A DNA stretch of 64,000 nucleotides from the NCBI RefSeq assembly GCF_000382145.1, contig NZ_KB907624.1, positions 63,752 to 127,751 of the forward strand, written 5' to 3'. Below, one piece after another: positions 26,271 through 42,726 of this stretch. A program made the translations under genes and the position numbers. Source of the DNA: Psychrobacter lutiphocae DSM 21542. GTDB lineage: Bacteria > Pseudomonadota > Gammaproteobacteria > Pseudomonadales > Moraxellaceae. Every line of letters starts with the position of its first letter. Positions within the stretch are counted from its first letter, which is position 1. The notes under the pieces are model-generated. The model did no database searches and was not told the origin of the DNA. It was given only the letters and a program-made list of their open reading frames with translations.

Positions 26271-26416
26271 TTAGCCATTCCCGCTTTCGCTACTATCTAC
26301 TTATCGATACGAGGCATTGGCTAAGAGTTGACGAGTCGCTTACTTCGTGCGCCGCGCCAAATCAAGCCACTGCAACTCGTCTCGCTAAGCAGTATATCCG
26401 CTACAATCGGGGCTAA
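26271..26416. repeat. 146-bp dispersed element, copy 1 (pair with 31382-31527)
   Basis: Aligns without length change to 31382-31527. Shared blocks include GCTACTATCT, CTTACTTCGTG, CTGCAAC and CAGTATATCCGCT. It is bounded by TTAGCC and GGCTAA, so the ends are inverted. It lies between the metallophosphoesterase gene and hrpA and has no credible coding frame. Confidence 0.8.
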
Positions 26417-26776: not shown

Positions 26777-29700
26777 ATGCCAGAAAATAATTCATCAAGC
26801 CTATCTTCAAGTAATCCTCATTCAAATACAAAACCTTCAAACCATACCAATGATAACGCTTTTATGACATCTGAAACTTCTGCCTTAATTATGCAACCCA
26901 ATAAGCAACAAGACGACCGACAGCATGAGCTACCTGTACTTGCCAAAGATCGGCATTTTTTAAGCCGTTTGCAACGTGAAATCACCCGTCCCAACAAAAA
27001 CACACCGCCAAAAGTGCTGGCAGAAAAACAAGCCAAGTTTGAACAAATCAAACAGCGCTCACAGCAAGCGGTGCAAGAACGTATCGACAGTATTCCGCTA
27101 AAAATGGCGGAGCGCCTTAACGATGAGTTGCCTGTCAGTAAGCGTGCCGAAGACATTGTACAAGCTATTAAAGAGCATCAAGTCATCATTGTGGCAGGCG
27201 AAACAGGATCAGGTAAAACCACACAACTGCCCAAACTGGCTATGATGGCAGGGCGAGGGATAACAGGGCAAATAGGACATACGCAGCCAAGACGGCTTGC
27301 CGCCAGAAGTGTTGCAAACCGTATTGCCGAAGAGCTAGGCGAGCAACTTGGTGATACCATCAGCTTTAAGATTCGCTTTAATGAGCAGGGCAGTGCAAAA
27401 TCCATCGTCAAACTGATGACCGATGGTATCTTACTTGCCGAATTGGGGCATGACAGGTTTTTAAACCGTTATGACACCATTATCATTGATGAAGCACACG
27501 AGCGTAGTCTAAATATTGACTTTATTATGGGCTATTTAAAGCAGCTATTGCCTAAGCGTCCTGATTTAAAAGTGATTATTACCTCAGCTACTTTAGATAC
27601 TCAGCGTTTTAGTGAATATTTTGCCCACTATGATAAGCGTAAAAAGCGGATGATACCAGCGCCAGTTATTAATGTGGAAGGTCGTGGCTATCCGGTAGAG
27701 GTACGTTATCGTCCGCTCACCGACACGCCTGTGGGCAGCTCAGACGATGACAGTTATGATGATTTTGAAGACAATCTGCCACGAGCGGTTGTCGCAGCAG
27801 TTGAAGAGTGTTTTGATGATGCTGTCAAAAAAGGGCATCCTGAGCATGCCGATATTCTAATTTTTGCGGCAACCGAAGCGGAAATCCGAGAGATGCAAGA
27901 GGTCTTGATTCAACATGGACCTCGCCATACCGAAATATTGCCGTTATTTGCCCGTCAAACGTATGCCGAGCAACAGCGCATTTTTAAACCCTCAGGGCGT
28001 GGAAGGCGTATTGTTATCGCTACTAACGTCGCTGAAACAGCGTTAACGGTACCAGGTACTCGCTATGTGATTGACTTGGGGTTTGCCCGTATTTCACGTT
28101 ATTCCTATCGCTCTCGGGTACAGCGACTTCCTATTGAAGCCATTTCACAAGCAGCTGCTAACCAACGCAAAGGTCGCTGTGGCCGTGTTGCTCCTGGGGT
28201 GTGTATCCGTCTATATAGTGAGGAGGATTTTGCCAGCCGTCCAGAATATACCGAGCCTGAAATCTTACGCACCAACCTAGCGTCTGTTATTTTACAAATG
28301 GCGAACTTGCGTCTGGGTGCTGTCGAAGATTTTGATTTTATTGAGCCGCCCGATAGCCGCTTGGTCAAAGATGGTCGCAAGCTGCTAGATGAGCTAGGTG
28401 CACTTGAGCCCAAACGTCCTGACAGCAAAAAGCCACTAGCAAAGCAGACACTCAATGATGTCAAACTAACCCGTGTTGGTCAGAAAATGGCACGCATGCC
28501 AATAGATCCAAGGCTGGCACGTATGTTGGTTGCCGGCAGTGATTTTGATTGTATGCTGGAGATGCTGATTATCGTAGCAGCATTGGCGGTACAAGACCCA
28601 CGTGAGCGTCCAGCAGAAAAGCGGGCACAGGCCGATCAAAAGCATGCGTTATTCCGTCAGCCAGACTCCGACTTTTTGTTTTATTTAAGCCTGTGGCAAG
28701 CCTTGTATGCCAATGGCAACAATAAATTAAGCAACAGTCAGCGCCGCAGTTTTGCCAAAAAGCATTACTTAAGCTTCCCACGCTTGCGTGAATGGGAGCG
28801 TACTTATCATCAGCTTGAGCAAATGGTTACGGACTTAAAGTTGCTCACTGATTCGGGTACAGCAAAAAAAGATATGCCACAAAGCCTATCACAACAACCA
28901 GCGTTAACCAGAGCAACGCAAGATAAATTGGTAAAAAGTAAGTCAGCCAAAGGCAAACCAGCTAAAGCTAAAGAAAAAGGGATTGCTAATAAAGTTACCG
29001 CCAACCAAGTTGCACCAGCCCTAATTGCTGAAGCTGGTGAGGTTGATGATGAGATACGTGCAGTGAAATATGCCAATTTGCACCGTGCCTTGTTAACCGG
29101 CCTGCTGTCTGTCATTGCACACAAAACAGATCAGCGTGGTGAATATTTGGCTGCCCGTCAGCAAAAAACCAAAATCTTCCCAGCCAGTACCGTCTACAAA
29201 CAAGCGCCGGCTTGGGTGATGGCGTTTGAGATTGTCGAAACTTCGCAAGTCTTTATGCGTACGGTGGCCAAGATTGAGCCAGAATGGATCGTGTCGGCTG
29301 CGGGTAACTTGCTCAAATATCACTACTTTGAACCGCATTGGTCGAAGAAAACTGGGCGAGTGCGTGCCTATGCACAGATTAGCCTATTTGGGCTTATTGT
29401 GGTCGCCAAACAGTTGACCAACTATGAGCAAATCAACTTAGAAGAATCTCGTGAAATCTTTATCCGTGACGGATTGGTAACCGGTAACTTTGGCCGACAA
29501 GCACCATTTTTACAGCACAACATGGATAAAATTGCTGATGTAGAACGCATTGAAGACAAATTGCGTCGTCGAGACTTACTGGTTGATGAAGAGGCCTTAT
29601 ATCAGTTTTATGAGCGCAAAATACCAGCGCACATTGCCAGCCGTAAAGCCTTTGAAGACTGGCGAGCAGAAGTCGAAAAAGAAGATGCAAAGTTCTTATT

Positions 29701-31153
29701 TTTCACAGATGAAGATGTGCTGAAAGAAACTGCCCCGACCACGGGTGAGTTCCCAGAAGTATGGCAACTCGGTGATCTAAAGCTGCCGTTAAAATATGTT
29801 TTTGATCCAGCGTCTGAAGATGACGGGGTCACCATTCGTGTGCCATTAGCTGCACTCCCTCAGCTTGATGCTATTGAGCTATTATGGGGGGTGCCAGGGT
29901 GGCGATATGAATTAGTATTACAACTACTGAAGTCGTTACCAAAAGAGATTAGACGTAAGATTGTACCGATTCCAGATACGGCCGACAGCCTGTATGATGA
30001 GCTACAAAAAAACCATCAAGTCGGGCTGCTCAATCAATTGTGCCAAGCCTTGCAACGTCGTGGCGTGGTCGGAGTCAAACCAGATGACTTCAATCCGTCT
30101 GCAATAGACCGTTATTTGCAGCCACAAATTTGTGTTGTCGATGACAAAAAGCAGATTATTGAAAAAGGGCGTGATTTAAAAGCATTACAACTACGTCATG
30201 CTAGTGAAACAAGTCAAGCTATATCTTCTGAAACAGATGCCCAAGGTGTTCATACGCACTTTCCAGAGCATTATAAATTCAGCCAAAATCGTCATAGCGC
30301 TGGCGTGGTTATGAAAGAATTTTCTGCCTTGGTTGCCGATGAGGCAGGCGAAGCTGTGACCATTTATCAATTTACCGATGTTACCGCTGCCTTAAATACA
30401 CATCGTAAAGGGGTGTTGACCCTTATCAAGTTACAGCTAGGCGCCAAACAAAAACAGCTCACCAGCCAAATTGACAAAACCTTTAAGCTAGCATTTGCCC
30501 CACTTGGCGACATGGAAAAACTAAAAACCATTGTTGTCGATGCCACCCTAGATGCAGCTTTAGAAGCCCATGCACCTCGCTATAAAGACCATGATGACAT
30601 CATACCCGACAATGCCGATGAGGCAGCCTACCAGCTTGCTGAACAGTTGCCATTAGACGACATTGAGTTTGAGCAAACAGCAAAAGCAGTATTAGGTCAA
30701 TTCTTATTAGAAGGTCAAACAGTTTTAAAGCTTTTAAAAGAAGTGTATTCCCGTTGGCAGCGCATTCGCCGCAGTCTCTTGATGCTGGATCGTGAGATAT
30801 TTGGCGAGTCGATTGACGACATCGAAGATCAGCTCGATGACCTGCATTTGTCCGATTTTGTTTATCGTATGAACTATGAACATTGGCAACAGTATCCTCG
30901 CTATCTTGAAGCCCTTGAGGTTCGTATTGAGCGTCTTGAGCACAATCTTGATGGCGACCTTGATGCGGTATATGAGCTTGATGTGCATATGGAGCGCCTC
31001 GCTGGACGTGCCGATGACGAGGCTATTAGTGAGTATCGCTGGCTGGTTGAAGAGTTTCGAATTCAGCTATTTGCACAGCCGATGAAGACCCGTCAAGCCG
31101 TATCTCAAAAGCGTTTAGAGCGGATGTGGGCAAAAGTCACCGCTCGTAAATAA
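26777..31153 (+). CDS. hrpA: ATP-dependent RNA helicase HrpA
   Basis: 1458 residues, longer than E. coli HrpA (1300). DEAH-box helicase acting on RNA and implicated in ribosome rescue and mRNA processing. Motifs: GETGSGKTTQ (Walker A), DEAHERS, ITSATLDTQ and QRKGRCGRV. The C-terminal third matches DUF3418 of HrpA. Two additions explain the extra length: a Ser/Asn-rich N-terminal tail of about 50 residues, and a Lys/Ala/Gln-rich stretch of about 70 residues near position 690-760 (including KSKSAKGKPAKAKEKG). Start at ATG 26777. Confidence 0.96.
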   Translation: MPENNSSSLSSSNPHSNTKPSNHTNDNAFMTSETSALIMQPNKQQDDRQHELPVLAKDRHFLSRLQREITRPNKNTPPKVLAEKQAKFEQIKQRSQQAVQERIDSIPLKMAERLNDELPVSKRAEDIVQAIKEHQVIIVAGETGSGKTTQLPKLAMMAGRGITGQIGHTQPRRLAARSVANRIAEELGEQLGDTISFKIRFNEQGSAKSIVKLMTDGILLAELGHDRFLNRYDTIIIDEAHERSLNIDFIMGYLKQLLPKRPDLKVIITSATLDTQRFSEYFAHYDKRKKRMIPAPVINVEGRGYPVEVRYRPLTDTPVGSSDDDSYDDFEDNLPRAVVAAVEECFDDAVKKGHPEHADILIFAATEAEIREMQEVLIQHGPRHTEILPLFARQTYAEQQRIFKPSGRGRRIVIATNVAETALTVPGTRYVIDLGFARISRYSYRSRVQRLPIEAISQAAANQRKGRCGRVAPGVCIRLYSEEDFASRPEYTEPEILRTNLASVILQMANLRLGAVEDFDFIEPPDSRLVKDGRKLLDELGALEPKRPDSKKPLAKQTLNDVKLTRVGQKMARMPIDPRLARMLVAGSDFDCMLEMLIIVAALAVQDPRERPAEKRAQADQKHALFRQPDSDFLFYLSLWQALYANGNNKLSNSQRRSFAKKHYLSFPRLREWERTYHQLEQMVTDLKLLTDSGTAKKDMPQSLSQQPALTRATQDKLVKSKSAKGKPAKAKEKGIANKVTANQVAPALIAEAGEVDDEIRAVKYANLHRALLTGLLSVIAHKTDQRGEYLAARQQKTKIFPASTVYKQAPAWVMAFEIVETSQVFMRTVAKIEPEWIVSAAGNLLKYHYFEPHWSKKTGRVRAYAQISLFGLIVVAKQLTNYEQINLEESREIFIRDGLVTGNFGRQAPFLQHNMDKIADVERIEDKLRRRDLLVDEEALYQFYERKIPAHIASRKAFEDWRAEVEKEDAKFLFFTDEDVLKETAPTTGEFPEVWQLGDLKLPLKYVFDPASEDDGVTIRVPLAALPQLDAIELLWGVPGWRYELVLQLLKSLPKEIRRKIVPIPDTADSLYDELQKNHQVGLLNQLCQALQRRGVVGVKPDDFNPSAIDRYLQPQICVVDDKKQIIEKGRDLKALQLRHASETSQAISSETDAQGVHTHFPEHYKFSQNRHSAGVVMKEFSALVADEAGEAVTIYQFTDVTAALNTHRKGVLTLIKLQLGAKQKQLTSQIDKTFKLAFAPLGDMEKLKTIVVDATLDAALEAHAPRYKDHDDIIPDNADEAAYQLAEQLPLDDIEFEQTAKAVLGQFLLEGQTVLKLLKEVYSRWQRIRRSLLMLDREIFGESIDDIEDQLDDLHLSDFVYRMNYEHWQQYPRYLEALEVRIERLEHNLDGDLDAVYELDVHMERLAGRADDEAISEYRWLVEEFRIQLFAQPMKTRQAVSQKRLERMWAKVTARK

Positions 31154-31173: not shown

Positions 31174-31368
31174 ATAAAGTTGGTTGACATAAAGTTGGTT
31201 GACATAAAGTTGGTTGACATAAAGTTGGTTGACATAAAGTAGGTTGGCATAAAGTTGGTTGGCATAAAGTTGGTTGGCATAAAGTTGGTTGGCATAAAGT
31301 AGGTTGGCATAAAGTGGGTTGGCATAAAGTGGGTTGGCATAAAGTGGGTTGGCATAAAGTGGGTTGGC
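31174..31368. repeat. 15-bp minisatellite, 13 copies
   Basis: Exactly 13 units of 15 bp, with consensus ATAAAGTTGGTTGGC, starting 20 bp after the hrpA stop. Units are ordered in blocks: four ending TTGGTTGAC, one TAGGTTGGC, three TTGGTTGGC, one TAGGTTGGC, then four TGGGTTGGC. There are no spacers, so it is not a CRISPR array. Open frames across it on either strand are by-products of the period being a multiple of three. Confidence 0.97.
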
Positions 31369-31381
31369 GTTTAATTATTTG

Positions 31382-31527
31382 GAGCCAATCTCGCTTTGCG
31401 CTACTATCTGTCCGTCATGACACGGCAGTTGCTAAGCGATGTGCTGTCTCTTACTTCGTGAGCCAGCGCATCGCAAGCGCCTGCAACGTGTCCTGCCAGC
31501 CAGTATATCCGCTTCAATCGAGGCTAA
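31382..31527. repeat. 146-bp dispersed element, copy 2 (pair with 26271-26416)
   Basis: Same length and block order as 26271-26416. It follows the minisatellite directly. GC content is higher than in surrounding spacers. Confidence 0.8.
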
Positions 31528-31573
31528 ACCGCATCCCACGACCACATTCAAAGCTTTTGCAGGATATCGTATG

Positions 31574-31620
31574 TAGGCTGGCATCGGGTTTGCTCGGTCT
31601 CGTCCCTCGACACCAACCTA
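31574..31620. repeat. Hairpin-forming repeat
   Basis: Imperfect inverted repeat TAGGCTGGCATCG / CGACACCAACCTA with a 21-nt centre containing CTCGGTCTCGTCC. A worn relative appears on the opposite strand near 43055-43075 (CCGAGGGACGAGG). The segment 31621-31770 between this and the next gene has no recognised feature. Confidence 0.6.
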
Positions 31621-31780
31621 CAAAGCGCACAAGGCACTGCTCCCTTCCTTTTCCTTTAGCCAAGCACAGCTTGACTCTTGCGAAGCTAAAAAGTTATCCC
31701 AGAGCTTTTTTCAACGCTTCTCAGGGTCGGGGATGGATTTGTTTTTTAACATTGCTCATATTAAATTAAGGATGAATAAC

Positions 31781-32725
31781 GTGCCAATATTCAATATTTC
31801 AGGTAATAAACTGGTTGCTGTGGAACAAACCAATTTTGACTATGAAAAACAGCTACAATCGTTGATTGAAAACAACCTTGAAACAGTATTTAACTGTCGG
31901 TTTGTGGCGACAGAGTTTTCAACAGGCACGTTGCATGCGGGTAGAATTGATACCTTAGCCTTATCTGAAGAAGATAATCCGGTTATTATTGAATATAAAA
32001 AAGTTGAGTCATCAGAGCTGATTAACCAAAGTCTTTTTTATTTGCACTGGATTCAAGATCATAAAGGAGATTTTGAAATAGCGGTGCAAAAGCAACTGGG
32101 TAAGTCAGTAAAAGTAGATTGGTCTGATGTCAGAGTGATATGTATTGCGCCTAATTATAAAAAGTATGATATGCATGCGGTACAAGTTATGGGTGCAAAT
32201 ATAGAGCTATGGAAGTACCGTCTGTTTTCGAATGATTCCATTTACTTTGAAGAGGTCTTCCATAACGCTAAGGCAGTAAGTAGCACAAATATCAATCCAG
32301 CAAATAAGTTAAAAAATCCAGTGATGGTAGAGGCTGGTAAAAAGGCGGCAATCACACGTGCGACAGTGACTTATACTTATGAAGAGCGATTAGAAGGTAA
32401 GAGTCAGAAGATTATTGATTTATCAAATAATATACGTGAGTTTATCTTAGGTTTAGATGAATCCATTGAAGAGTCACCTAAAAAATACTATGTGGCCTAT
32501 AAGGTTTCGCAAAATATTGTTTGTATGGAAATTTTAAGCCGAAACATCAAGCTATTTTTAAAGTTTAACCCATCTGATATAGCTAAAGACACGCCGAATT
32601 TTAGAGATGTATCAGAGATAGGGCATTATGGTACAGGTGATGTTGAGTTCACCATAACCTCTGATGAGGATTTTGAATCCGTCAAACAATATATTATTAA
32701 GGCTTATAATAAAATTGGCGGATAA
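31781..32725 (+). CDS. PDDEXK-type nuclease with C-terminal DUF5655
   Basis: 314 residues from GTG 31781, which has AAGGA 8 nt upstream; an in-frame ATG at 31772 lacks room for a ribosome site. The N-terminal half has restriction-nuclease-fold marks: LIENNLETVF, GRIDTLAL with the metal aspartate, and VIIEYKKVE with the E-x-K pair. The C-terminal part (NIKLFLKF, then DVSEIGHYGTGDVEFTI) matches DUF5655. The family is found beside defence and repair genes, but its substrate is unknown. It overlaps the next gene by TAATG, so the two are translationally coupled. Confidence 0.8.
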   Translation: MPIFNISGNKLVAVEQTNFDYEKQLQSLIENNLETVFNCRFVATEFSTGTLHAGRIDTLALSEEDNPVIIEYKKVESSELINQSLFYLHWIQDHKGDFEIAVQKQLGKSVKVDWSDVRVICIAPNYKKYDMHAVQVMGANIELWKYRLFSNDSIYFEEVFHNAKAVSSTNINPANKLKNPVMVEAGKKAAITRATVTYTYEERLEGKSQKIIDLSNNIREFILGLDESIEESPKKYYVAYKVSQNIVCMEILSRNIKLFLKFNPSDIAKDTPNFRDVSEIGHYGTGDVEFTITSDEDFESVKQYIIKAYNKIGG

Positions 32726-33678
32726 TGACCTTTACTAAAACTCATTCGATACATGAAAAGCCCATGCACCCACACGACACTTCAATTCAGCTTGCCCATG
32801 ACATCCGCCAGTATTTACAGGTCCATCAGCTAAGCGATGGCTTACCAGCGATTAGCTATGAGATACTGGCGTTGCAGCTGTTAGACAGCATTAAGCAAGA
32901 GCAGCAGATTGAGGCTTTATTTAATCAGCCACTGTCGCAAACTTGTTGTGATCCAAAATCACCAGACTTTGATCCGATTAAAGCCATTGTACGTATAAAA
33001 GATATAGATTATGACGAGGCGTGCTGGCTGAGTTTTTTGCTGATATATACCAATGACAGCGCAGAGAGTGATTGGGCGTTTATGCGTTTGCTTTATAATG
33101 GTATTGGCTTAACAGCGCCAAGGCTAACATGGCAATTTATAACCGAGCAGACCTTATCGTTACAAGATAGTTTGCAGCAGCTTGCCAAGGCATTAGCCGC
33201 CCATGATCCAAAGCCTAAGTTTGGCCATCACCGAGCTTATGAGTCTTTGGCGCAGTTGCCAGCTGTATTTCACAGTTATATTGCTTTTATCACTGAGCAG
33301 GGCGGACATAAAGCCTTATTTAAACCACATAAAACACTTAAACCAAACAAAAAGGTTATAGCTAAGCAAGCCTACTTTCAGACTCTATATTCGCTAATCC
33401 GAAACATCTATCGCTTTGGTCGGTTGTCGACTTTTGAGTATTTATGTTTAGTTGGCAAGATGGGATTGGCAGATGTGGCGCCAGACAGTTGTTATATTGC
33501 AGAGGCAAGTGGTCCCAAGCGTGGTGCTAAGCTGTTGTTTGGTATGTTAACCAATGAGCAGCTGGATAATCACGCTGTGGGTTTGGCAGATTATCTTGAT
33601 GTGGGCTACCAGCAAATGGAAGCGGCCATTTGTCATTGGCAAAAGTCGCCGCAGCGATATATTAAAATGCCTCATTAA
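32725..33678 (+). CDS. Protein resembling alpha-glutamyl/putrescinyl-thymine pyrophosphorylase (clade 3)
   Basis: 317 residues. The C-terminal half carries IYRFGRLSTFEYLCLVGKMGL, then CYIAEASGPKRGAKLLFG, a pattern I associate with the aGPT-Pplase family. These proteins were predicted by comparative genomics to act on hypermodified thymine in phage DNA and have a helix-hairpin-helix glycosylase-like core. The N-terminal half is helical and rich in Leu and Gln. An ATG at 32764 is an alternative start. Coupled to the nuclease gene upstream. The family call is from memory of the motif and needs a profile search. Confidence 0.45.
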   Translation: MTFTKTHSIHEKPMHPHDTSIQLAHDIRQYLQVHQLSDGLPAISYEILALQLLDSIKQEQQIEALFNQPLSQTCCDPKSPDFDPIKAIVRIKDIDYDEACWLSFLLIYTNDSAESDWAFMRLLYNGIGLTAPRLTWQFITEQTLSLQDSLQQLAKALAAHDPKPKFGHHRAYESLAQLPAVFHSYIAFITEQGGHKALFKPHKTLKPNKKVIAKQAYFQTLYSLIRNIYRFGRLSTFEYLCLVGKMGLADVAPDSCYIAEASGPKRGAKLLFGMLTNEQLDNHAVGLADYLDVGYQQMEAAICHWQKSPQRYIKMPH

Positions 33679-33892: not shown

Positions 33893-33975
33893 TGCATGTC
33901 CTTTTTTTTGCTTTTTAGCTCTTCTAGTTTGATTCTTGTAGATGAGCAGCCTAATTGTTAGGCTTCAACTTTATT

Positions 33976-34140
33976 ATTTGCAAACTTGCTATTTGCAAAC
34001 TTGTTATTTCCAAACTTGCTATTTCCAAACTTGCTATTTCCAAACTTGCTATTTCCAAACTTGCTATTTCCAAACTTGTTATTTCCAAACTTGTTATTTC
34101 CAAACTTGTTATTTCCAAACTTGTTATTTCCAAACTTGTT
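33976..34140. repeat. 15-bp minisatellite, 11 copies
   Basis: Eleven units of 15 bp: one ATTTGCAAACTTGCT, one ATTTGCAAACTTGTT, four ATTTCCAAACTTGCT, five ATTTCCAAACTTGTT, then a degenerate twelfth unit at 34141. It lies directly after the stop codon of the minus-strand dehydrogenase gene. Four frames stay open across it only because of the 15-bp period. Confidence 0.97.
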
Positions 34141-34154
34141 ATTTGCAAAATTTA

Positions 34155-35231
34155 TCACTTGCAAGTTCGTGACTTCCAAATCACCGACGCATCAATGCTA
34201 TCAAGGCTGTCACGACCAGTGAGACGCATTGCCATTTCAAACTCATGTTGTAGTATGTGTAGCGCTTTAGTGACACCTTCAGCACCAGCTGCGCCTAAGG
34301 CATGAGCGATGGGTTTGCCTAATAGCACCGCATCAGCGCCTAGCGCTAAGGCTTTTAACACATCGGTGCCACGGCGAATGCCACCATCAAGCAACACAGG
34401 AATGCGTTGTTCTACCCGTTCGACTACTCTTGGCAAAGCCTCTATGGTTGGCGGCGCTGTGTCTAGCTTTCTGCCCCCATGATTGGAGACGATGATCCCT
34501 GCTGCGCCAATGTCGATGGCCCGTTGGGCATCTTCGCCACTGACGATGCCTTTGATTAATACCGGCAGCTTGGTATAGGCAATGAGCTCTTCCACCAGTT
34601 GCCAGCTTACTGGAACTGGTCTGCCGATTTTGTATGGCGTGACCAAGTCTGCTGGCAGGTTAAAGCCAATTTTTTGTTCTTTGTTGCGTACCGCAGAGGC
34701 GACAGAATCTAGGGTAATACAAATGGCACGACAATTATTCACTTCTGCTTGGCGGATGACGTCTTTGGCAAACTCTGTGTCTTGTTGGATATAGAGCTGA
34801 AACCAAATTGGCGTTGTAGCAACGTGTTGGATATCTTCTAAAGATGTTGTGGTAAATGAGCTAATGACACAGGCAGTATTGGCTTCACCTGCGCCTTTGA
34901 CTGTGGCCAGTTCGCCTTCTGGGTGCATGATTTTTTGGAAGGCAAAAGGATCGACCATGATGGGATAGTCTAGGGTGTCACCAAATAAGTTGACCTTGGT
35001 GTCAAGCTCGCCAGCTGGATTGAGCACTCTTGGATTTAAAAAGATATCATCAAAGGCGGTGTGATTTTTGTTAAAGGTAATCTCTTCGCCTGCACCAGTT
35101 GAGACATAAGCAAAGGCGCTTTGGCTCATGTGTTTTTTTGCCAGTACTTCAAAGTCAAATAAGTTGGTGACTTGTGATAAGTCATTGATGGGGTAGTTGT
35201 CGAGTTCGTGTTGGAGGCTGATGTTTTTCAT
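34155..35231 (-). CDS. FMN-dependent 2-hydroxy-acid dehydrogenase/oxidase
   Basis: 358 residues of the lactate oxidase/glycolate oxidase/L-lactate dehydrogenase family. The enzyme oxidises L-2-hydroxy acids, passing electrons to FMN. The catalytic histidine lies in IIVSNHGGRKLD, with FMN phosphate binding in LLDGGIRRGTDVLKALALGA and YIQQD earlier. The substrate-side loop reads KIGFNLP rather than the usual form, so the substrate is open; lactate is only the default guess. No lactate permease or regulator is adjacent. Confidence 0.88.
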   Translation of the reverse strand: MKNISLQHELDNYPINDLSQVTNLFDFEVLAKKHMSQSAFAYVSTGAGEEITFNKNHTAFDDIFLNPRVLNPAGELDTKVNLFGDTLDYPIMVDPFAFQKIMHPEGELATVKGAGEANTACVISSFTTTSLEDIQHVATTPIWFQLYIQQDTEFAKDVIRQAEVNNCRAICITLDSVASAVRNKEQKIGFNLPADLVTPYKIGRPVPVSWQLVEELIAYTKLPVLIKGIVSGEDAQRAIDIGAAGIIVSNHGGRKLDTAPPTIEALPRVVERVEQRIPVLLDGGIRRGTDVLKALALGADAVLLGKPIAHALGAAGAEGVTKALHILQHEFEMAMRLTGRDSLDSIDASVIWKSRTCK

Positions 35232-42630: not shown

Positions 42631-42726
42631 TATAGTCAGAGAGCTACTAAGTGCAGTGTCTCGCTAAGCCTACGTGAGTAGTACTTGCACTTGCTTGCCT
42701 TGTATCTTTAGACTTCTTTGACTATA
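42631..42726. mobile_element. MITE-like element B, copy 2 (pair with 33702-33808)
   Basis: 96 bp with end repeats TATAGTCAGAGAG and CTTCTTTGACTATA. It shares interior blocks with copy 1 (CTCGCTAAGCCTAC, TACTTGC, GCCTTGT). It sits in the leader of the receptor gene, between the predicted Zur operator and the start codon. Confidence 0.72.

What the first reader, a model, noticed from the sequence alone, without database searches (positions are those of the whole stretch)
31781..33678. Coupled nuclease and base-pyrophosphorylase-like gene pair
A PDDEXK nuclease with DUF5655 overlaps (TAATG) a gene with the RFGRLSTFEYL / GPKRGAKLLFG pattern of the aGPT-Pplase family. That family was predicted to act on hypermodified thymine of phage DNA. 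The pair sits in a repeat-rich spot between the minisatellite and 146-bp element on one side and a MITE and a second minisatellite on the other. A two-protein system that senses or strips modified bases and cuts DNA is a plausible, undescribed defence module.
Basis: inference. Interest (0 to 1): 0.66.

Follow-up and report, generated by a model that had tools for sequence, protein, structure and literature searches.

The report
Orphan base-modifier beside a stray nuclease
The two genes are real but not a conserved pair: a DNA-cutting gene appears to have landed next to a long-resident gene of a base-modifying family whose usual partners elsewhere are a predicted nucleotide hydroxymethylase and a toxin-antitoxin-like pair.

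Summary
Both gene calls are right; the two-gene system is not supported. The second protein is aGPT-Pplase clade 3 (PF18746, 4e-59), with a predicted fold nearest to a phage amino-acid:DNA transferase (PUGT, Z 11.4). Six other Psychrobacter carry it in the same chromosomal neighbourhood without the nuclease. The nuclease is full-length in 1 of 105 Psychrobacter genomes, this one, in a ~1-kb low-GC insert.

Elsewhere the clade has other partners: a thymidylate-synthase-like gene upstream in 38 of 39 loci and a convergent HTH-M78 gene in 38 of 39, each miss at a contig edge; the nuclease in 0 of 39. The TS-like proteins carry the cytosine-type Asp in 35 of 35, predicting a dCMP hydroxymethylase, so the clade probably deals with hydroxymethyl-cytosine, not thymine. 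Some modules add a protein with Brig3-type active-site residues.

The window gene is an orphan without these partners, changed at seven of 33 near-invariant positions. The nuclease is a separate defence-type gene (PADLOC PDC-S18). As a pair this is ordinary; the module is the better lead.

The parts
26777..31153 (+). HrpA-like DEAH helicase gene (label by eye, from no family search); left flank of the locus
   Evidence: ORF; same gene on the same stretch as aGPT3 in L012-L016, with other genes between in L013 and L014
31174..31368 (.). 15-bp minisatellite, 13 copies
31374..31651 (.). intergenic element also present (83% identity) at the same place in G055, which lacks the nuclease
31740..32757 (.). 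segment absent from G055 at the same locus (about 1 kb, boundaries approximate); holds only the nuclease gene; no target duplication recognised
   Evidence: exact boundary read by eye from the two sequences
31772..32725 (+). PD-(D/E)XK nuclease with C-terminal DUF5655 (317 aa); D60 at 31949-31951, E74 at 31991-31993, K76 at 31997-31999
   Evidence: (PDC-S18 1.1e-112); GC 35.3%
32725..33678 (+). aGPT-Pplase clade 3 / ADDT-like protein (317 aa), orphan form; probable ancestral start ATG at 32764
33974..34149 (.). second 15-bp minisatellite, 11.7 copies
34155..35231 (-). FMN-dependent dehydrogenase gene; right flank of the locus, shared with G055 only among the loci fetched
   Evidence: PF01070 5.6e-113

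Best explanation
The window shows a juxtaposition, not a system. (1) Shown: the aGPT3 gene belongs to a clade of orphan copies in 7 Psychrobacter genomes, in one chromosomal neighbourhood, next in the tree to a Psychrobacter copy that sits in a module with a thymidylate-synthase-like gene and a convergent HTH-M78/small-gene pair. Where synonymous sites are not saturated the orphans show purifying selection. (2) Predicted from residues: the TS-like enzyme is a dCMP 5-hydroxymethylase, so the module aGPT3 most likely acts on the hydroxymethyl arm of cytosine as a PUGT-like transferase. (3) Inferred: no such hydroxymethylase was found in the orphan's host, so the orphan either meets hydroxymethylated or hypermodified pyrimidines only in incoming phage DNA or has changed substrate. 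Its fold and the E299/C303/W305/K307 block are kept, while R58, W134, N168, D238, T262, D300 and N304 are replaced. (4) Shown: the nuclease is a separate gene of the PADLOC PDC-S18 family with a NucS/EndoMS-like nuclease domain plus a YjbR/YdhG-like C-terminal domain, present in an insert that the nearest relative lacks; 4 of 8 plasmid relatives opened lie among type I restriction genes. Inferred: it arrived later and cuts foreign DNA on its own, with DUF5655 as its DNA-binding part.
For: aGPT3 without nuclease in 6 genomes of the neighbourhood. Nuclease full-length in 1 of 105 genomes, the other 6 hits being partial and weak. Insert against G055. GC 35.3% against 43.3-47.7% for the six other genes measured. 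dN/dS was finite in 3 of 15 pairs: 0.12 (window-G055), 0.11 (G038-G046), 0.055 (G055-G037, dS 3.8); the other 12 were saturated. Orphans one clade 100/99, sister to the module copy of G089. Helicase tree of six genomes (G037's contig stretch has no helicase) agrees on the window+G055 and G046+G073 pairs, but not on the place of G038/G039. TS-like 25 of 25 and M78 24 of 25 in viral contigs; plasmids 8 of 8 for both. TS residues 35 of 35 with controls. TS-like search of the 8 genomes: strong hit only in G089, elsewhere none or weak (best E 2.5e-4). Fold. Type I restriction genes beside the nuclease in 4 of 8 plasmid loci (one search had no annotation).
Against: The two genes are head-to-tail, overlap, and no terminator-like site lies between them, so they may be co-transcribed. 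Other strains of this species were not available. DUF5655 also ends GmrSD-type (modification-dependent, by recall) restriction proteins in Psychrobacter, which keeps a shared theme of modified bases alive. D300 and N304 are not shared by phage PUGT either in a very weak alignment (probability 2.9%, E 0.016), so their loss need not mean loss of catalysis. Direction of change (module lost, or orphan ancestral) is not fixed, because the tree is rooted at the midpoint only. Many of the 39 module loci are close relatives of one another, so they are fewer independent cases.
Confidence: 0.7

Rival explanations
1. The nuclease and aGPT3 form a young operon in this lineage: the insertion made a translationally coupled pair, with aGPT3 marking or sensing modified phage bases and the nuclease cutting there.
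For: TAATG overlap; no terminator-like site between them; both kinds of protein have ties to modified-base biology; aGPT3 stays intact and constrained.
Against: Found in 1 of 8 Psychrobacter genomes with aGPT3 and in 0 of 39 other aGPT3 loci. The overlap depends on a start codon that G055 does not use. The nuclease family stands elsewhere with type I restriction genes in 4 of 8 plasmid loci opened.
Confidence: 0.12
2. The orphan aGPT3 has become a base-excising or base-binding protein (HhH-glycosylase-like) rather than a transferase, working on phage hydroxymethylpyrimidines without a partner.
For: After PUGT the next fold matches are 8-oxoguanine, MutY-type and 3-methyladenine glycosylases and the queuosine salvage enzyme (Z 9.4 to 6.6; that these share the HhH fold is recalled). 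Seven positions nearly invariant in module copies are changed in all 7 orphans. No host source of the hydroxymethyl nucleotide was found.
Against: Z under about 13 is weak for a helical protein, as the tool itself warns. No glycosylase catalytic residue could be assigned. PUGT is the top match.
Confidence: 0.2
3. The orphan aGPT3 is a decaying relic of the module.
For: Partners absent; long branch to the orphans (0.56); the G039 copy appears frame-shifted near its start.
Against: 6 of 7 orphans keep a full reading frame while the window copy is 61-79% identical to the others; dN/dS 0.055 to 0.12 in the three pairs that could be computed.
Confidence: 0.15

Closest known systems
PUGT, 5-phosphomethyl-deoxyuridine glycinyltransferase gp46 of phage PaMx11 (PDB 8z2n/8z2m)
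   Same: Best fold match of the window protein: Z 11.4, 215 residues, 3.9 A, 12% identity; the phage also encodes a thymidylate-synthase-annotated gene, gp51
   Different: Sequence link very weak (no PDB hit by profile); gp51 has the uracil-type Asn, the bacterial module's enzyme the cytosine-type Asp; the window copy has no partner
TS-like / aGPT3 / HTH-M78 module on plasmids, chromosomes and viral-collection contigs (described here from loci; aGPT-Pplase is named as a predicted, unvalidated defence domain in PMC13092281)
   Same: Same protein family, PF18746
   Different: The window copy lacks TS-like, M78 and small-gene partners and differs at seven near-invariant positions
PD-lambda-2 (PMC9519451, passages read)
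   Same: The module's HTH-M78 protein (L037 copy) matches PADLOC PD-Lambda-2_B at 7.6e-34, with a small gene upstream
   Different: The small gene had no Pfam or PADLOC match and only a weak PHROG toxin match (0.041); TS-like and aGPT3 are not described as part of PD-lambda-2 in the passages read
Brig1/Brig3 DNA glycosylases (PMC11078745, PMC13160076, passages read)
   Same: An accessory protein in some modules has N-P-S-x-x-E, Y-x-x-W-F and H-x-D (6 of 6), the same order and the same spacing within each motif as Brig3 N50/P51/S52/E55, Y97/W100/F101, H125/D127
   Different: The gap between the first two motifs differs (42 against 51 residues), and Brig3 R197 and N225 were not placed; Brig sequences themselves were not available, so this is a motif match. 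No such gene was found in the 8 Psychrobacter genomes with aGPT3 (no positive control). The window protein is not shown to be a Brig
PDC-S18 (PADLOC candidate), EndoMS/NucS, Shedu SduA
   Same: The window nuclease matches PDC-S18 over its whole length (1.1e-112); nuclease-domain fold Z 12.9 to EndoMS/NucS, 9.3 to SduA
   Different: Has DUF5655 (YdhG/YjbR-like fold, Z 10.5 to 9.0) at its C-terminus; NCBIfam NucS score 13.2, far below its cut-off 216

Membership tests
aGPT-Pplase clade 3 (PF18746) | profile score above the curated cut-off | tested here: met
   200.7 bits against 25
Amino acid:DNA transferase (ADDT/PUGT-like) | profile and fold resemblance | tested here: met
   PF18724 150.6 bits against 26.2; PUGT top fold match Z 11.4; viral ADDT-domain models, best E 1.3e-5
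Amino acid:DNA transferase (ADDT/PUGT-like) | amino-acyl transfer to a hydroxymethyl or phosphomethyl pyrimidine in DNA | not testable with these tools
   needs biochemistry
TS-like / aGPT3 / HTH-M78 module | TS-like gene upstream (directly, or with one gene between) | tested here: not met
   absent in window and in the 6 other orphan loci; genome-wide no strong hit in the 7 orphan genomes
TS-like / aGPT3 / HTH-M78 module | convergent HTH-M78 gene downstream | tested here: not met
   downstream neighbour is an FMN dehydrogenase; no tblastn match in window
   0 of 7 other Psychrobacter with aGPT3; 0 of 39 other aGPT3 loci; 0 shared plasmid records
PD-(D/E)XK nuclease | D, E-x-K core and nuclease fold | tested here: met
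   D60, E74, K76; EndoMS/NucS Z 12.9
PDC-S18 | full-length profile match | tested here: met
   1.1e-112, residues 1-315
NucS/EndoMS (NF003270 equivalog) | score above cut-off 216 | tested here: not met
   13.2 bits
Brig-type DNA glycosylase (for the window protein) | UDG-like alpha/beta fold | tested here: inconclusive
   model is all-helical and UDG folds are not in the list, which cannot exclude them

The most novel reading that the evidence does not exclude
aGPT-Pplase clade 3 is the second enzyme of a mobile bacterial immune module that builds a decorated 5-hydroxymethyl-deoxycytidine: a dCMP 5-hydroxymethylase makes hm-dCMP, aGPT3 adds an amino-acid-like group (or, where the Brig3-like glycosylase is present, hydroxymethylated DNA is stripped), and a PD-lambda-2-like HTH-M78 pair gates the response. 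The Psychrobacter orphan, including the window's, is a domesticated stand-alone form that meets such bases only in phage DNA.
Probability: 0.28. Interest if true: 0.75.

Novelty: new variant of a known kind. Interest (0 to 1): 0.42.

Why it matters
It removes a plausible but unsupported two-gene defence claim and replaces it with a testable one. aGPT-Pplase clade 3 was named for thymine, yet its near-constant bacterial partner carries cytosine-type residues. If the module is a defence system it would be a nucleotide-hypermodifying immune system run by bacteria and not by phages. The orphan clade in Psychrobacter is a natural separation-of-function case: the same protein without its partner enzyme.

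Tried and rejected
Conserved nuclease-aGPT pair: rejected. Brig identity for the window protein: considered because both act on modified bases; the papers describe UDG-like structural homologues, while the window model is all-helical and matches PUGT; left inconclusive. A solved structure by sequence for either window protein: none convincing; the weak YTH-domain hit of the DUF5655 part (E 0.011) does not appear in the fold lists, which give YdhG/YjbR-like matches. Foldseek alone found no PDB match at E 0.001 for the aGPT model; the VIA-align second look gave the PUGT match. Phage relatives of aGPT3 by tblastn at E 0.001: none. A viral-contig scan with the window nuclease alone gave no relative; with an alignment it gave 21 loci. 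A search for further glycosylase-like proteins returned only the four contigs already held. Module glycosylase-like protein in the PDB by sequence: nothing better than E 0.14 by profile or 0.74 with one sequence; no Pfam match for three copies; NCBIfam gave sub-cut-off hits to DNA-deoxyinosine glycosylase for two of three copies, 0.00083 and 0.014. One small gene I first took for MazG has no Pfam match and a weak PHROG MazG-like match (0.004). Literature: no paper in the held library holds 'DUF5655'. I found no paper that describes the module in these searches, but figures and supplements of PMC13092281 were not seen, and the PUGT paper was not found.

Full report
Observation. The window holds two complete overlapping genes. 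The first (31772-32725) ends in DUF5655 and its N-terminal half has a PD-(D/E)XK core (D60, E74, K76) conserved in all 8 aligned members, the window and 7 plasmid loci. The second (32725-33678) is aGPT-Pplase clade 3 (PF18746) and also passes the ADDT cut-off. The minisatellites on either side are real.

The pair is not conserved. In 105 genomes of the genus the aGPT family occurs in 8, the window's included, and a full-length nuclease only in the window's own genome; six other genomes show partial, weak matches. In six of the seven other genomes the aGPT gene stands in the same chromosomal neighbourhood with no nuclease. The helicase gene is on the fetched stretch in five of the six (next to aGPT in L012, L015 and L016, with other genes between in L013 and L014; the contig of L011 starts too near). 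The transporter and trpB genes are on the other side in four (L011, L013, L014, L015), and the dehydrogenase in L012. The names helicase, transporter and trpB are my reading of the sequences. In the closest, G055, the DNA matches the window on both sides of the nuclease, and about 1 kb is extra in the window. The nuclease has 35.3% GC, the six other genes measured 43.3 to 47.7%. In G055 the aGPT gene starts at the equivalent of the internal ATG at 32764, so the TAATG overlap looks like a product of the insertion.

The resident gene. The seven orphan sequences form one group (100/99), with the Psychrobacter module copy of G089 next to it. For the six genomes with a helicase sequence, the aGPT tree agrees with the helicase tree on two pairs, window+G055 and G046+G073, but places G038 and G039 differently. 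dN/dS could be computed for 3 of 15 pairs (0.12, 0.11 and 0.055); the other 12 are saturated. One orphan (G039, not in that table) appears frame-shifted near its start.

What the family usually travels with. I examined 39 aGPT3 loci outside the orphan locus: 25 viral-collection loci, 8 plasmid records, all that matched, 5 genomes outside the genus, all that matched in the three samples searched, and G089. They are not 39 independent cases: two loci lie on one contig, two have aGPT proteins identical to another row, and several others are near-copies. A TS-like gene lies upstream in 38 of 39, directly or with the glycosylase-like gene between; the exception, G538, is cut by a contig edge inside the aGPT gene. 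An HTH-M78 gene lies convergent downstream in 38 of 39; the exception, L055, reaches the contig end after the aGPT gene. The DUF5655 nuclease was found in none (tblastn for 38; annotation for L052). The M78 protein of L037 matches PADLOC PD-Lambda-2_B at 7.6e-34 and NCBIfam HigA at 1.3e-7, below that model's cut-off. The small gene upstream of it is HigB-like mainly by position: no Pfam or PADLOC match, one weak PHROG toxin match. PD-lambda-2 was described as HigB-like, Xre-peptidase and a third component, with abortive-infection defence (PMC9519451, passages).

Base specificity of the partner. The TS-like protein of L037 is closest to the CMP hydroxymethylase MilA (2e-52) and far less close to ordinary thymidylate synthases (best 3e-16). 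Of 37 module sequences taken, 35 were aligned (two dropped for reading-frame reasons; one exact and one near duplicate remain). The catalytic Glu, Cys, His and Tyr are present in 35 of 35, the Ser that goes with deoxyribose in 35 of 35, and the Asp that goes with cytosine in 35 of 35; the Arg/Lys position is Arg in 32 and Lys in 3. The meaning of these positions is from PMC5175136 (passages). Two controls in the same alignment behave as expected: gp51 of phage PaMx11, annotated thymidylate synthase, and the host's own thymidylate-synthase-like gene have Asn at the Asp position. So the module enzyme is predicted to make 5-hydroxymethyl-dCMP, which argues against the thymine in the family's name for this clade. 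Four of 25 viral loci (two of them with the same match coordinates and scores), and L035, L037 and L038, also hold a protein of about 265 aa. Its N-P-S-x-x-E, Y-x-x-W-F and H-x-D are invariant in 6 of 6 aligned copies and fit the residues reported for the 5hmC glycosylase Brig3 (PMC13160076, passages). The gap between the first two motifs differs by nine residues, and two further Brig3 residues (R197, N225) could not be placed. This is a motif match; the Brig sequences were not held.

What the window proteins look like. The aGPT model is confident (pLDDT 87.7). Its best solved match is the phage 5-PmdU glycinyltransferase PUGT (Z 11.4, 215 residues, 3.9 A), then DNA glycosylases at Z 9.4 and below; for a helical protein these Z values are modest, as the tool warns, and Foldseek's own scores were not significant. 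Viral amino-acid:DNA transferase models match at 1.3e-5 at best. Of 33 positions near-invariant in 35 module copies, the orphans keep 26 (in at least 6 of 7) and all 7 differ at R58, W134, N168, D238, T262, D300 and N304; D238E and T262S are mild. A very weak profile alignment with PUGT shares the E..C.W block but not D300 or N304, so these changes may mean a new substrate and not inactivity. No TS-like protein of the module type was found in the orphan genomes (the same search finds the G089 copy), and no glycosylase-like one (without a positive control). The nuclease model (pLDDT 80.9, pTM 0.52) has an EndoMS/NucS-like domain (Z 12.9) and a C-terminal domain like YdhG/YjbR (Z 10.5 to 9.0) and, less so, the T4 MotA DNA-binding domain (Z 6.9). 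DUF5655 also ends GmrSD-type restriction proteins in the two Psychrobacter loci scanned (L020, L024). In 4 of 8 plasmid loci opened for the nuclease (one without annotation), type I restriction genes flank it; a ninth has restriction and methylase genes or fragments nearby.

Prior knowledge. PMC13092281 (passages and section 5) lists aGPT-Pplase among predicted but unvalidated defence domains and reports a thymidylate synthase and a 5-hydroxymethyluracil kinase among domains newly validated in defence. That supports defence by analogy; its figures and supplements were not seen.

Verdict. The claim that the orphan handles phage modified bases is inference.

Noticed in passing
L010, L029-L035, L037, L038, L050, L051, L053-L077: Recurrent module: TS-like (predicted dCMP hydroxymethylase), aGPT3, convergent HTH-M78 and a small gene; probably an uncharacterised defence or base-modification system.
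   Followed up: partly
L035:5094-5894, L037:8129-8923, L038:1391-2185, L053, L055, L056: Glycosylase-like protein with Brig3-type active-site residues inside some modules.
   Followed up: partly
L034, L050, L067, L068, L070-L072, L074, L075: A small protein with a weak MazG-like match recurs beside the M78 pair in 9 of the 38 module loci scanned; DUF4031-like genes recur upstream in 4 (L010, L053, L055, L060).
   Followed up: no
L029:4076-4861, L033:3980-4765, L051:5844-6518: A different, unmatched protein of about 262 aa near the TS-like gene in three modules.
   Followed up: no
L020, L024: DUF5655 at the C-terminus of GmrSD-type restriction proteins in Psychrobacter, beside what looks by eye like an integrase gene.
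   Followed up: no
L036:2339-3291: Nearest plasmid relative of the window nuclease (71%) is an unannotated, apparently frame-broken copy near restriction and methylase genes or fragments on a Saccharobesus plasmid.
   Followed up: no
window 31174-31368 and 33974-34149: Two 15-bp minisatellites of unlike sequence flank the locus; the second stops 5 bases short of the dehydrogenase ORF.
   Followed up: no
window 26273-26416 and 42660-42726: Further copies of intergenic elements that also occur between helicase and aGPT and after aGPT in G055.
   Followed up: no
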